Part shown: piece by piece, positions 14,708 through 18,924 of the stretch
Numbering within the stretch: position 1 is the first letter of the stretch
Layout of the letters: each line of letters starts with the position of its first letter
From: Mycobacterium cookii
Lineage (GTDB): Bacteria; Actinomycetota; Actinomycetes; Mycobacteriales; Mycobacteriaceae
Length of the DNA stretch: 64,000 nucleotides
NCBI RefSeq assembly: GCF_010727945.1
Contig: NZ_AP022569.1
Location: 2,170,001-2,234,000, forward strand
Direction of reading: 5' to 3'
Notes under the pieces: generated by a model
The model's input: only the letters and a program-made list of their open reading frames with translations
Told to the model about the DNA's origin: nothing
Database searches by the model: none
Made by a program: the position numbers and the translations under genes

Positions 14708-14721
14708 AGACGTTGAAGCGG
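14708..14721 (-). repeat. ychF 3'-end repeat, copy E (truncated)
   Basis: A 14-bp match to the end of copies C and D; on the minus strand it reads as the terminal codons RFNV plus TAG, the usual C-terminus of YchF. It lies 14 bp upstream of the Ddn-family gene at 14736 and marks the far edge of the repeat-delimited block. Confidence 0.5.
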
Positions 14722-14735
14722 GATATGGTCAACGC

Positions 14736-15230
14736 ATGCCGCTGCGTTACGTGGATCCCCACAAGAAACGTGGCCGCATCTATGAGGCCAATGTGCGATT
14801 CGGCCGGTCCCGTCCGGGACAGTCTCTTGCGCGCCACCTTGCACCTCGCGTCGACCCGTGGCTGCATCGGGCAACTGCAGGACGGATGAATATGGGATTG
14901 GTTATCAACGCACCTCTGAAGACCACGGGTGCAAAGTCTGGTCAGCCACGAGTGGTTCAGCTCACCTACTTTCACGATGGGCGCGATCCGATCCTGATGG
15001 CCTCCAACTACGGCGGCGCGAAACACCCGCAGTGGTATTACAACCTCAAGGCGCACGCGGAGTGCGAGTTTGGCGGCGAGAGCTTTGTGGCGACCGAGGT
15101 AACCGATGCCGACGAGTATCGCCGCCTCTACGCGCTCGCAGAGCACGTCTACGCCGGTTACCGCGATTATCGCGCCAAGACCGCACCGGTCGGACGCCAG
15201 ATTCCGCTCTTCCGACTCAACCCCCGCTAG
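14736..15230 (+). CDS. Ddn-family (F420-dependent nitroreductase-like) protein
   Basis: 164 aa. Visible are the family motifs APLKTTGAKSGQPRVVQLTY and NYGGAKHPQWYYNLKAH, which form the F420-binding split-barrel of Ddn-like proteins. The C-terminus (YRAKTAPVGRQIPLFRLNP) is also typical. Related to but clearly different from the protein at 11239. It sits between ychF 3'-end repeats E and D and reads opposite to ychF. Probably imported as a single-gene unit (see findings). Confidence 0.88.
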   Translation: MPLRYVDPHKKRGRIYEANVRFGRSRPGQSLARHLAPRVDPWLHRATAGRMNMGLVINAPLKTTGAKSGQPRVVQLTYFHDGRDPILMASNYGGAKHPQWYYNLKAHAECEFGGESFVATEVTDADEYRRLYALAEHVYAGYRDYRAKTAPVGRQIPLFRLNPR

Positions 15231-15250
15231 CGCCCCGCCGCCCTGCCACC

Positions 15251-15287
15251 AGACGTTGAAGCGGAACTCCACCACGTCGCCGTCGGC
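15251..15287 (-). repeat. ychF 3'-end repeat, copy D
   Basis: 37 bp; on the minus strand it encodes ADGDVVEFRFNV, the canonical C-terminus of YchF GTPases, but in non-coding DNA 20 bp after the Ddn-family gene. It matches copy C at 34 of 37 positions. No remainder of ychF accompanies it. Confidence 0.85.
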
Positions 15288-15396
15288 AACCGGCTATTCG
15301 ACGCGAGCCGCCGGTACCAGTCGCGGGATTTCTCTTCGTAAACTCGACCATCGCTGCATGCTTTGTCGAGCGAGATCATCGTCCGAGGAGCAACGT

Positions 15397-16601: not shown

Positions 16602-16714
16602 GTCGCCGGAGCATACCGACGACCCGGAAGGCAGCGGTCCGATTGGGCCGAATGCGTAAAGAACGAACGACATCTCGCAAAGAGCAGTTGCTAGTGACCA
16701 GCAGACTTGCCACG

Positions 16715-16759
16715 AGACGTTGTTTGGAACCGGAACTCCACCGCGTCGCAATCGGCCAT
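16715..16759 (-). repeat. ychF 3'-end repeat, copy B
   Basis: 45 bp; the minus strand reads MADCDAVEFRFQTTS, closest to the actual ychF end (copy A, 36 of 45 identical) and sharing its 5-bp insertion relative to C and D. It begins 3 bp past the stop of the DUF6670-like gene. Confidence 0.8.
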
Positions 16760-16762
16760 CTT

Positions 16763-17785
16763 CTATCGGAGGTCGATGTATTCGATATACGCAATACCTT
16801 CGATCGCTTTGCCGCGAAAGCTTCCGGTGTAGTGGTAGCTGCCTACGAATCCGGCTCCCAGCCCGTACACCCAATCCCCGTGACATCGTCCAGTGATGCT
16901 GATGACCTCGGATCCCCGGAGATACGCCGACCACGTCAGCGTGGCGGGCAGTCGCATGTCGCGGCCGCTTGGCGTTGATCGCGGGGCGGGCTCGTATTCC
17001 TCGACGTCGAACCTGGTATCGAGCAACTCGCTCCCGTAGTCGTCCAGGCCCCGAACCCATGTCGCGGAAATGAGTTCAATCCCGCCTGCACCCAACACCT
17101 TTGACGTCAAAACCTGTGTGCGCTCGTCGATGTTCAGAACGTGGTAGGTGAAGAACGGCACCGGAAGGTTGGGGGTGCCGGGTATCGGGATCGAGTGCAG
17201 CCCAACTCCGCTGGCGTATTCGAGCGTGCACAACCCGGCGACTAAAAGGCCGCCGACCGCACCGTTGTACCGACACAAAAGGCTCCAGTGCGTGTAAAGG
17301 CCACCAGGGAGGTCAACGAAGTACGTGACCTTATCCGTTGCCTGGATGTCGAGGTCCACCACAACATCACGGTGGAACCGCTGGAGCCGGAAGTCGGGAT
17401 AACTGCCCTCGATGGTGAGATCGTCGCCGAGGCGAACGAGGCTGCCGTCTGGGAGAATTTCGCAGTCCCGTGCGATCGAGTAGGTGTGCAAACCCTCGCC
17501 CCGCATGGCAGCGGTGGCTGACACCAGGTAGGCGGTATCGCTCGCGCTGGTGACAATCGCGTGATCGTTGGAGAAGATCGCGATTCCCGGCGTCCCGATG
17601 ATCGACATCACCCCGAACGTTCGATGCGGCTCGGGAAGATCGGGCACCATCACTCCGTAATGCACCCAACTCGACCGCAGACCGTGGGGAGGCGTCAGCT
17701 GGGTACTCGGGTCGAACGGGCGGCCGATTCGCCGACCGTTCCGGTTGAGGCGCTTGGCGAGTGCAGACACCGCCGATGCAATCAT
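16763..17785 (-). CDS. AttH/CrtC-like lipocalin-type protein (DUF6670-like), putative
   Basis: 340 aa, rich in beta strands, no signal peptide. Repeated patterns such as YVTYFVDLP, THWSLLCRYNGAVGG, TFTYHVLNIDE and the closing ITGRCHGDWVYGLGAGFVGSY are reminiscent of the AttH/CrtC double-lipocalin fold seen in carotenoid hydratases and in mycobacterial DUF6670 proteins. I recognise the family only loosely and cannot assign a function. It is the unit nearest to ychF, 41 bp after the ychF stop, with repeat B at its 3' end. Confidence 0.65.
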   Translation of the reverse strand: MIASAVSALAKRLNRNGRRIGRPFDPSTQLTPPHGLRSSWVHYGVMVPDLPEPHRTFGVMSIIGTPGIAIFSNDHAIVTSASDTAYLVSATAAMRGEGLHTYSIARDCEILPDGSLVRLGDDLTIEGSYPDFRLQRFHRDVVVDLDIQATDKVTYFVDLPGGLYTHWSLLCRYNGAVGGLLVAGLCTLEYASGVGLHSIPIPGTPNLPVPFFTYHVLNIDERTQVLTSKVLGAGGIELISATWVRGLDDYGSELLDTRFDVEEYEPAPRSTPSGRDMRLPATLTWSAYLRGSEVISITGRCHGDWVYGLGAGFVGSYHYTGSFRGKAIEGIAYIEYIDLR

Positions 17786-17826
17786 GGCGCCGACGCTACT
17801 GGCTCGCTCCTTAGACGACCGTTCCC

Positions 17827-18924
17827 CTATGCCTTGGCCTTCGATGTAGACGTCGTTCCAAACCGGAACTCGACAACGTCGCCGTCGGCCATCACGTAGT
17901 CCTTGCCCTCCATGCGGACCTTGCCGGCGGACTTCGCCGCGGCCATCGATCCGGCGGCGACCAGGTCGTCGTAGGACACGATTTCGGCTTTGATGAAGCC
18001 TTTTTCGAAGTCGGTGTGGATCACCCCGGCCGCCTTCGGCGCGGTGTCGCCCTGGTGGATGGTCCAGGCGCGTGACTCCTTGGGCCCGGCGGTCAGGTAG
18101 GTCTGCAGCTTCAGAGTGTGAAAACCCGCCCGCGCCAACGCATCCAAGCCGCGTTCGGTCTGGCCAATCGACTCCAACAGCTCGGCGGCCGACTCCTCGT
18201 CCAACTCGATGAGCTCGGCCTCGATCTTGGCGTCCAGGAACACCGCATCCGCCGGCGCCACCAGCGCACGCAACTCGGCGACCCGGTCGGCGTCGGTCAG
18301 CACCGACTCGTCGGCGTTGAACGCGTACAGGAAGGGTTTGGTTGTCAGCAGATTCAATTCCCGCAGCAGTGCCGCATCGGCGCCCGCGGCGAACAACGTA
18401 GTTCCGCCGTCGAGCGTCTGCTGTGCGGCCACGGCGGCATCGAACAGCGGTTTGCGTTCCTTGTTATTGCGGGCCTCTTTCTCCAACCGCGGCACCGCGC
18501 GCTCGAGGGTTTGCAGATCGGCCAGGATCAGCTCGGTCTCGACGACCTCGATGTCCGACTTCGGGTCGACCTTGCCCGCGACGTGGGTCACGTCGTCGTC
18601 GGCGAACACCCGGACCACCTGGCAGATCGCGTCGCACTCGCGAATGTTGGCGAGGAATTTGTTGCCCAGGCCCGCTCCCTCGGACGCACCGGCGACCAGG
18701 CCGGCGATGTCGACGAAGGTCACCGGCGCCGGGACGATCTTCTCGGACGCGAACATCTCCGCCAAGGTGGCCAGCCGCGGATCCGGCAACGGCACCACGC
18801 CCTCGTTGGGCTCGATGGTCGCGAACGGGTAGTTGGCGGCAACCACGTTGTTTCTGGTCAGCGCATTAAACAGGGTCGATTTACCGACGTTGGGCAGACC
18901 CACAATCCCGAGGCTCAGGCTCAC
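17827..18924 (-). CDS. ychF: redox-regulated ATPase YchF with altered C-terminus
   Basis: 365 aa, GTG start. Obg-family P-loop GLPNVGKSTLFNALT, NYPFATIEPNEG, DIAGLVAGASEGAGLGN and the TGS domain at the C-terminus; ATP-preferring ribosome-associated regulator. YchF proteins normally end in GDVxxFRFNV; here a 5-bp insertion changes this to FRFGTTS plus TSKAKA and moves the stop downstream (repeat copy A). A TACACT -10 lies 9 nt before the GTG, so the mRNA is probably leaderless or nearly so. Divergent from the DUF6542 gene. Confidence 0.96.
   Translation of the reverse strand: MSLSLGIVGLPNVGKSTLFNALTRNNVVAANYPFATIEPNEGVVPLPDPRLATLAEMFASEKIVPAPVTFVDIAGLVAGASEGAGLGNKFLANIRECDAICQVVRVFADDDVTHVAGKVDPKSDIEVVETELILADLQTLERAVPRLEKEARNNKERKPLFDAAVAAQQTLDGGTTLFAAGADAALLRELNLLTTKPFLYAFNADESVLTDADRVAELRALVAPADAVFLDAKIEAELIELDEESAAELLESIGQTERGLDALARAGFHTLKLQTYLTAGPKESRAWTIHQGDTAPKAAGVIHTDFEKGFIKAEIVSYDDLVAAGSMAAAKSAGKVRMEGKDYVMADGDVVEFRFGTTSTSKAKA
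17848..17892 (-). repeat. ychF 3'-end repeat, copy A (within ychF)
   Basis: The copy that is still part of the ychF reading frame, encoding MADGDVVEFRF and then GTTS. All copies share the core that reads GAGTTCCG...ACGTCT on the minus strand. Confidence 0.85.

What the first reader, a model, noticed from the sequence alone, without database searches (positions are those of the whole stretch)
14708..17892. Four single-gene units separated by direct copies of the ychF 3' end: a possible recombination hot spot or cassette array
Reading the minus strand, the end of ychF (about 40-45 bp, encoding ADGDVVEFRF plus a short tail) occurs five times in the same orientation: 17848 (inside ychF), 16715, 15884, 15251, and a truncated 14-bp copy at 14708. 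Between consecutive copies lies exactly one gene: a DUF6670-like protein, a TIGR03085-like protein, a four-helix membrane protein and a Ddn-family protein, in two orientations. Copies C and D differ at 3 of 37 positions and A and B at 9 of 45, so they diverged or came from different donors. No full ychF, integrase or transposase remains. Repeated insertion at the 3' end of ychF, each event regenerating the end, explains this best. From general knowledge, M. tuberculosis also carries accessory genes (vapBC32) directly after ychF, so the site may be a mycobacterial hot spot.
Basis: partly seen in the sequence, partly recalled or inferred. Interest (0 to 1): 0.85.

Follow-up and report, generated by a model that had tools for sequence, protein, structure and literature searches.

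The report
Single-gene cassette arrays behind ychF
Next to the housekeeping gene ychF, this bacterium carries a row of single foreign genes, each ended by a short copy of the tail of ychF, and its relatives carry different genes in the same kind of row, so the end of ychF appears to be a docking site where one-gene units are added, much like the gene cassettes of integrons but at an unrelated site.

Summary
The 3' end of ychF recurs three times downstream plus once truncated, all in one orientation, and the own 5.3-Mb genome has the motif nowhere else. The pattern recurs in the genus: of 40 loci not chosen for it, 15 have extra copies, 12 of them convincing. The copies are a discrete site of about 36-40 bp bounding units of about 0.7 kb, mostly one gene in ychF sense with its stop codon about 21 bp before the next site. 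Twenty-five homology blocks start at a site in both genomes at non-equivalent places (0.05 expected). Three relatives share one right flank behind three, two and one different units. The window's TIGR03085 unit reappears in another array (80% identity). Insertions can replace YchF's C-terminal tail. The best candidate recombinase is a tyrosine integrase family found directly behind ychF in several Actinomycetes, whose elements use the same core; it was not found in the own genome, so its role in moving the units is inferred. Integron integrase and attC-like folding were not found. The literature searches made listed no earlier description.

The parts
17827..18924 (-). ychF, intact, 365 aa; anchor gene of the array; C-terminal tail FRFGTTSTSKAKA instead of FRFNV
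   Evidence: (TIGR00092, 425 bits)
17853..17889 (-). site A: last codons of ychF (ADGDVVEFRF) plus start of the first unit's tail
   Evidence: 35.6 bits
16763..17785 (-). unit 1 gene: DUF6670 protein, 340 aa, stop codon 6 bp before site B
   Evidence: PF20375, 153.7 bits
16720..16756 (-). site B, with unit-type tail TTCCAAACAACGTCTCGTGGC
   Evidence: 23.4 bits
15960..16598 (-). unit 2 gene: TIGR03085 family protein, 212 aa; a relative with 80% identity is a unit of another array in L013
15884..15920 (-). site C, host-type right half (AAACGTCTAG)
   Evidence: 32.7 bits
15394..15885 (+). unit 3 gene: EXPERA/EBP-like membrane protein, 163 aa, against ychF sense
   Evidence: E 2.9e-5, below cut-off; 1 of 147 other genomes has a homologue at E 1e-20
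15251..15287 (-). site D, fits the consensus of the 23-bp arm fully
   Evidence: 40.3 bits
14736..15230 (+). unit 4 gene: F420H2-dependent quinone reductase (Ddn-type) relative, 164 aa; unit or resident gene, undecided
14706..14721 (-). site E, truncated: CCGCTTCAACGTCTAG only, without the 23-bp left arm
   Evidence: 23.9 bits with the right-half model; 0 reverse-strand hits at 18 bits or more in 80 loci

Best explanation
The 3' end of ychF is a site-specific insertion hot spot of mycobacteria (and, more sparsely, of other Actinomycetes) at which one-gene units accumulate head to tail. A unit is: a short left end that supplies a new in-frame C-terminal tail for YchF (or leaves FRFNV), one gene, and at its right end a 23-bp arm plus core, GACGGCGACGTGGTGGAGTTCCG. 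The exchange probably lies in or next to the TTCCGSTT stretch shared by the copies. SHOWN by sequence: a discrete site, mostly one-gene units, precise presence/absence at the site between relatives, the same unit in different slots and arrays, tail exchange, and larger elements with a tyrosine integrase using the same core. INFERRED: that the one-gene units move as circles by a tyrosine recombinase; that the ychF-targeting integrase family, supplied in trans by satellites or islands that come and go, is that recombinase; that growth is mainly at the ychF-proximal site; co-transcription with ychF.
For: Directional repeats: 75 forward against 1 reverse hit at 11 bits or more in 591 kb downstream of 80 ychF genes. 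Discrete borders. 85 units of 2 kb or less: 62 with one gene, 9 with two, 14 with none called; main reading frame in ychF sense 58, against 13; stop codon 40 bp or less before the next site in 48 of 58. 41 gene clusters among 71 units, 14 of them in two or more loci, often in different slots (loose single-linkage clusters). Precise polymorphism: L013 2233-2885, L080 1398-2049 and L033 549-1131 are the same flank starting at the site behind 3, 2 and 1 units; L080 has one extra unit in front of a unit that touches ychF in L078 and L099. Aquaporin unit shared from site to site by L005 (650-1574) and L012 (1204-2138). In 19 of the 25 shared blocks one genome has the block touching ychF and the other further out, as growth at the ychF end predicts; the 25 are not independent (6 are one unit of L009). 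Tails: 58 of 80 YchF end in FRFNV, 22 in others such as FRFGTTSTSKAKA, FRFQTTSGGKAAGH, FRHGQASTSKSKA, FRFQATSGQQKK. Integrase behind ychF in L124, L131, L132, L153, L088 and in G334, G355, G386, in pieces in G066; elements of 12.7, 6.1 and 10.9 kb in G355, G066, G386 bounded by copies sharing at least AGTTCCGCTTCAACGT; in G386 the element sits in the site behind a one-gene unit, so a unit border served as its target. Five aligned integrases keep R, H, R, H and Y (their catalytic role is recalled).
Against: No member of that integrase family was found in the own genome at E 1e-20 or better (5 of 35 first-look candidates scored), and its three Phage_integrase proteins are about 25-32% alike over long stretches. 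Broad relatives at E 1e-20 are common (318 of 396 genomes), but only 14 genomes have a full-length member at E 1e-133 or better, with pieces in G264, G081 and G066; of 30 fetched loci 4 lie at ychF. The right ends of integrase elements lack the 23-bp arm that the one-gene units keep, so the two could use different enzymes. The ychF-adjacent integrases are not one clade. No circular form was seen. Homologous recombination over ychF on one side and the 40-bp site on the other could also exchange units; internal copies are slightly closer to the own ychF (2.21 against 2.62 differences; closer in 40 of 58). The right border of the shared unit has no recognisable site in L078 and a damaged one in L099. 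14 of 85 units have no gene called, two of them only 18 and 23 bp long. Four loci (L064, L068, L071, L081) have an exchanged tail but no second recognised site.
Confidence: 0.75

Rival explanations
1. Accretion and decay of ordinary integrative elements (CIMEs): phage satellites or islands with the ychF-specific integrase integrate in tandem, then lose all but one gene each.
For: Integrase elements and integrase remnants at the same site; 30 right-half copies without the 23-bp arm look like attR ends; such accretion is described for streptococci (PMC5704250, passages read).
Against: Units are tight: stop codon a median of 21 bp before the next site, main frame filling a median of 77% of the unit; random decay should leave ragged remnants. 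The 23-bp left arm at unit right ends is absent from the three integrase elements with both ends seen. Units recur site to site in different arrays.
Confidence: 0.25
2. Homologous recombination: DNA carrying ychF plus a downstream gene recombines through ychF on the left and the short repeat on the right.
For: ychF is well conserved (96.6% DNA identity between L079 and L080, which have different arrays); internal copies are slightly closer to the own ychF.
Against: Does not explain how a gene first gains a site at its end; the repeats do not extend upstream into ychF; only 7 of 58 copies are identical to the own ychF; 40 bp is short for homologous exchange (general knowledge).
Confidence: 0.15
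3. A true integron with a divergent integrase and attC-like sites.
For: Anatomy: single genes mostly in one sense, stop codon close to the site, shuffled order; cargo resembles integron cassettes as recalled (GNAT, VOC/glyoxalase, DUF1801, SnoaL, toxin-antitoxin).
Against: No protein reaches the integron-integrase cut-off in 15 array genomes (best 82.9 of 265 bits; none of the 14 control genomes does either, so that control shows no positive); six site sequences do not fold better than shuffles (z -0.62 to +1.16); the site is conserved in sequence.
Confidence: 0.03
4. Chance similarity or one segmental duplication of the ychF end.
For: Copies in the window differ at up to 30% of positions.
Against: 58 forward against 0 reverse hits, and on average 1.9 for other parts of ychF; 25 shared blocks starting at sites against 0.05 expected.
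Confidence: 0.01

Closest known systems
Integron gene cassettes (sedentary chromosomal integrons; features recalled)
   Same: Single genes mostly in one sense, each with a recombination site just behind its stop codon; shuffled order; apparent growth at one end; small metabolic, detoxification and toxin-antitoxin genes
   Different: Site is the 3' end of a coding gene and is conserved in sequence; no attC-like folding; no integron integrase over cut-off; insertion rewrites the C-terminus of a conserved protein; no intact recombinase gene seen inside the one-gene arrays
CIME/IME accretion at the 3' end of housekeeping genes (e.g. ICESt1 family at fda; locus from recall)
   Same: Tandem elements at the 3' end of a conserved gene, each regenerating the end; integrase elements with the same target are present
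   Different: Units of about 0.7 kb, mostly with one gene, many keeping a 23-bp arm at the border, in 12-15 of 40 unselected loci of one genus
Phage satellites / PICI-like islands of mycobacteria (PMC10654092, passages read)
   Same: Integrase, HTH_17 protein (excisionase-like, inferred), DUF3631 protein and defence-like cargo in the ychF elements of G355 and G386; capsid genes were not looked for
   Different: Targets described in the passages are tRNA genes for some and other sites for serine integrases; ychF, EngD and GTPase do not occur in its main text
pdif modules moved by XerC/XerD (recalled)
   Same: Single genes flanked by short recombinase sites, no local recombinase
   Different: On the chromosome behind ychF; resemblance of the site to dif was not tested

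Membership tests
Integron | Integron integrase (TIGR02249) in the genome | tested here: not met
   0 of 15 array genomes over the 265-bit cut-off; best match 82.9 bits. The 14 control genomes also have none over the cut-off, so there was no positive control
Integron | attC sites defined by a folded single strand | tested here: not met
   six site sequences (four from the window, two composed by hand), z-scores -0.62 to +1.16
Integron | Array of one-gene units, mostly one sense, site behind the stop codon | tested here: met
   62 of 85 units with one gene, 58 against 13 in ychF sense, 48 of 58 stops within 40 bp
Integron | Insertion at a fixed primary site | tested here: inconclusive
   19 of 25 shared blocks touch ychF in one genome; blocks are not independent and direction of change is not proven by a tree
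CIME / accretion of integrative elements | Direct repeats at the 3' end of a conserved gene, as attL and attR | tested here: met
CIME / accretion of integrative elements | Related autonomous element with integrase at the same site | tested here: met
   G355 and G386 with both ends; G334 with only the ychF side seen; integrase in pieces in G066
CIME / accretion of integrative elements | Units derive from such elements by decay (shared left and right ends) | tested here: inconclusive
   right ends of integrase elements lack the 23-bp arm of many one-gene units, but a second class of copies lacks the arm too
CIME / accretion of integrative elements | Excision in trans by the integrase | not testable with these tools
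   needs an assay
pdif / XerCD modules | XerC/XerD dif-type site | not tested
   no dif site was located in these genomes

The most novel reading that the evidence does not exclude
Mycobacteria own a cassette-capture system independent of integrons: a 36-40-bp site made from the end of ychF, one-gene cassettes gained and shuffled by a tyrosine integrase supplied in trans, and a cassette-encoded C-terminal tail that keeps YchF whole. It would be a second origin of integron-like gene stockpiling, in Gram-positive Actinomycetes.
Probability: 0.4. Interest if true: 0.93.

Novelty: new variant of a known kind. Interest (0 to 1): 0.82.

Why it matters
Integrons are the textbook device for stockpiling single genes and are, from general knowledge, rare in Actinomycetes. 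A locus where many members of a genus collect and reshuffle one-gene units at one defined site of about 40 bp makes open questions testable: how a gene gets its recombination site in the first place, and whether integron-like arrays evolved more than once. It also tells where to look for newly acquired genes in these bacteria, and it shows a widely conserved protein, YchF, whose C-terminus is rewritten by mobile DNA. The larger elements at the site carry defence-like genes (AriA/AriB-, NsnA- and Dsr1-like), linking the site to phage-defence traffic.

Tried and rejected
Searching phage and plasmid collections with the whole region gave matches whose listed rows all fall in the ychF part (6 of 6 phage records, 20 listed of 52 plasmid records); the 60-base site query gave mostly weak matches (E 0.03 to 10) apart from one record that also matched ychF. 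A viral-contig pattern scan gave 5 contigs, two of which hold a ychF, one of them with an integrase near it (L088). The three Phage_integrase proteins of the own genome were considered as mover; they are only distant relatives and were not pursued. attC-like folding was tested and not supported. Homologues of the DUF6670, TIGR03085 and EXPERA genes elsewhere in the genus were fetched to see whether they too stand next to a site: 0 of 39 loci (2.3-4.0 kb each) does, so sites do not simply travel with these gene families. Close relatives of the ychF integrases that are not at ychF had no tRNA in their 3-4 kb loci; a quick look suggests ends of other protein genes and was not followed. A motif regex for tyrosine recombinases gave many false frames; I kept by eye only those with an HDLRH...GH...TY-like context. 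Control offset -725 in ychF gave 23 forward hits; unexplained.
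Full report
Observation. On the minus strand the end of ychF occurs at 17853-17889 (in the gene), 16720-16756, 15884-15920, 15251-15287, and as a 16-bp rest at 14706-14721. The own genome (5,318,517 bases, one contig) has the motif 4 times with up to 3 mismatches, all here, none in the reversed control. 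One annotated gene lies in each interval: DUF6670, TIGR03085 family, an EXPERA/EBP-like membrane protein (just under the Pfam cut-off), and an F420H2-quinone-reductase (Ddn-type) relative. ychF is intact and ends FRFGTTSTSKAKA.

Recurrence. The pattern search over 396 genus genomes gave a match in 384. From the listed places I count 41 genomes, own included, with two or more copies on one strand within 5 kb (hand count; the list was cut, and one search covered the 44 genomes with two or more same-strand hits that it had not listed, plus 4 without a hit; in one of the 41, G160, the pair is not at ychF). I took 80 regions: 40 from 39 genomes chosen for multiple copies (one region, L010, holds no ychF) and 40 from genomes with a single pattern hit. 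With a weight matrix of the 23-bp arm GACGGCGACGTGGTGGAGTTCCG, trained on the ychF ends of the 79 loci and the window, there are 75 forward hits and 1 reverse hit of 11 bits or more in 591 kb downstream. A second matrix for the right half, GTTCCGCTTCAACGTCTAG, finds at 18 bits 45 copies with and 30 without the arm, and 0 on the reverse strand. With both, 54 of 79 ychF loci other than the window carry extra sites: 39 of 39 chosen and 15 of 40 not chosen. Of those 15, L056 and L060 have only a second core about 20 bp on, and the L047 hit (5.4 kb away, 16 bits) may be chance, which leaves 12. Among 80 named Actinomycete ychF loci, 8 have an extra hit of 11 bits or more and 7 an exchanged tail (one more, Corynebacterium jeikeium, ends FKFNV): Mycobacterium sp. 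1164966.3, Mycolicibacter longobardus, Mycolicibacterium senegalense, Nocardia coubleae, Nocardia arthritidis, an actinomycete MAG and Actinopolyspora righensis. Nocardia lijiangensis has a second copy with a tail motif at 3.4 kb.

Anatomy. In 58 internal copies of 20 bits or more, information is 0.02-0.21 bit per position upstream of -4, 0.47-0.72 at -4 to -1, mostly 1-2 over 0 to +28, 0.31-0.79 over +29 to +35 and 0.02-0.26 from +36 on, whereas ychF itself carries 1.1-2 bits upstream (positions 0-22 were selected by the matrix, the flanks were not). Hence a discrete site and not a duplicated piece of gene. Other parts of ychF give on average 1.9 forward hits (36 offsets, maximum 23 at -725), the 3' end 58. 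To the right of the arm a copy reads either host-type (for instance CTTCAACGTCTAG) or unit-type (for instance TTTGGATCAACGTCTACAAGCAAGG, TTCCAAACAACGTCAGGTGGCAAGG). Where a unit-type tail follows ychF itself, it is translated as a new C-terminus: 58 of 80 loci end in FRFNV, 22 do not. Of 85 units of 2 kb or less (window and the duplicate L039 left out) 62 have one gene, 9 two and 14 none by a simple caller (two of the units are the 18- and 23-bp cases); the main frame runs with ychF in 58 and against it in 13; in the 58 the stop codon lies at a median of 21 bp before the next site, within 40 bp in 48; median length of the 98 units up to 3.5 kb, window included, is 676 bp. Cargo with Pfam or NCBIfam support, from 17 unit proteins tested, of which 3 had no match: aquaporin Z, AHSA1/SRPBCC, methyltransferase, short-chain dehydrogenase, glyoxalase/VOC, GNAT acetyltransferase, DUF1801, SnoaL/LEH-like, cation efflux, DUF1254/1214, AAA/CPT kinase-like, a weak alpha/beta hydrolase, Phd/YefM and ParE.

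Mobility. Of 5,380 homology blocks of 150 bases or more between downstream regions of mycobacterial loci, 25 start at a site in both genomes at non-equivalent places, against 0.05 expected for random placement (blocks share loci and are not independent, six being one unit of L009). L013, L080 and L033 (ychF 92.9-95.5% identical) share a right flank that starts at the site, behind three, two and one units; L078 and L099 have directly at ychF the cation-efflux unit that in L080 comes second. In L080 the last site is degenerate (21.8 bits), and the right border of the shared unit has no recognisable site in L078. The aquaporin unit is shared from site to site by L005 and L012, and a family-13 unit lies second in L009 but first in six other loci. 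The window's TIGR03085 gene is 80% identical to a unit of L013 that lies between sites 1370 and 2230 among other neighbours, while in 148 genus genomes (L013's genome not among them) 63 match, own included, and the others are at most 66% identical; none of 39 fetched homologue loci of the three window genes has a site. The EXPERA gene has one homologue in 147 other genomes (51%, with a stop inside, in G145, itself an array genome). DUF6670 matches in 7 of 147 other genomes, 41% or less, and a 33-42% relative lies behind ychF in L057 without a recognised site. Ddn-type relatives lie between sites in L012, L014 and L072 and beside one in L018 (37-45% identity), but closer relatives (59-73%, one partial) lie beyond the last recognised site in 16 loci, so the fourth window unit is uncertain.

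Integrase. A motif scan found tyrosine integrases directly behind ychF in Amycolatopsis acididurans, a Modestobacter, a Blastococcus and a Micrococcales MAG, and within 0.9 kb of it in one viral contig; they align over most of their length and the three tested are Phage_integrase by Pfam. Remnants lie in the ychF loci L011, L074, L076 and L077. A genus scan finds broad relatives at E 1e-20 in 318 of 396 genomes, full-length close members (E 1e-133 or better) in 14, pieces in G264, G081 and G066, and nothing in the own genome (at most 5 candidates scored per genome). Of 30 loci fetched there, 4 lie at ychF: G334, G355, G386, and in pieces G066. Three elements run from site to short site: G355 1208 to 13935, G066 828 to 6888, G386 1339 to 12230; in G334 no second site was found in the 6-kb stretch taken, which reaches the contig end. 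G386's element sits behind a one-gene unit, in that unit's border. G355 and G386 carry integrase, HTH_17 and DUF3631 proteins and a resolvase-like protein (read by eye). Defence-like cargo: an AriA match at 1e-23 (PtuA models nearly as good) with a weak AriB match at 3e-4, an NsnA-like and a Dsr1-like protein. On a tree, 8 ychF-adjacent integrases need 3 changes of label, against 7.4 for shuffles (1 of 500 as low); they are not one clade. The right arms of these elements differ from the 23-bp arm of the units, so identity of the mover is an inference.

Comparison with the known. No integron integrase over cut-off in 15 array genomes and no attC-like folding: it works like a cassette array but is not an integron by these tests. 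Accretion of CIMEs is the nearest documented process (PMC5704250, passages). ychF as a prophage neighbour is reported for Streptococcus pneumoniae, on the promoter side (PMC6375853, passages). The mycobacterial prophage survey PMC10654092 has no occurrence of ychF, EngD or GTPase in its main text (passages; its Table S2 was not read). Searches of the library for ychF, Rv1112 or EngD with integration, cassette, attB or island terms, for integron-like arrays and for accretion and satellites (first 8 rows each) listed no title or abstract start describing this system; subscription papers are mostly not covered.

Verdict. A real, recurrent, precisely bounded one-gene cassette array at the end of ychF; a tyrosine recombinase is likely, its identity not proven.

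Noticed in passing
window 13370-14338 (+): Peroxiredoxin (AhpC-TSA, residues 6-154) and a DUF742 domain (204-318) in one 322-aa protein, an odd pairing beside the array.
   Followed up: no
L010 / G160:C9:407378-407793: Two sites with unit-type tails 387 bp apart around an 82-aa frame, on another contig than ychF, among genes that look mobile by eye: a possible vehicle or second landing site.
   Followed up: partly
L221 (G276:C3:2751150): Single arm-plus-FRH-type tail copy far from ychF in a genome whose ychF end lies at C3:4254685.
   Followed up: no
L208 6105-8345 (G386): AriA-like ATPase (PtuA models nearly as good) with a weak AriB-like neighbour inside a ychF-integrated element: PARIS-like pair.
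   Followed up: partly
L174-L186: Sister integrases of the ychF family stand beside other genes (one recurrent frame ending in QFAVNPFK or similar; one glutamine-synthetase-like end, named from recall); no tRNA in their loci.
   Followed up: partly
copies in L008, L011, L018, L019, L046, L049, L050, L072, L082 and others: A second right-end class, roughly TTTATCGGYGACGCAATNCGGTGGAGTTCCG (consensus drawn by eye), without the 23-bp arm: perhaps a second cassette or element family at the same site.
   Followed up: partly
L159 against L162 (Actinopolyspora): ychF 95.6% identical; L159 has about 3.5 kb more DNA between ychF and a shared flank, and an exchanged tail FRSGLASGGKK: perhaps the same process outside mycobacteria.
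   Followed up: no
L100 (Mycolicibacter longobardus): About 7 kb between ychF and a site behind which lies the sequence that touches ychF in L047.
   Followed up: no
NZ_LN868939.1 (Nocardia farcinica), 1767892-1767924: The 60-base site query matches at 84% in a record with ychF at 1761508-1762575 and two places in all, so a second copy may lie about 5 kb behind ychF.
   Followed up: no
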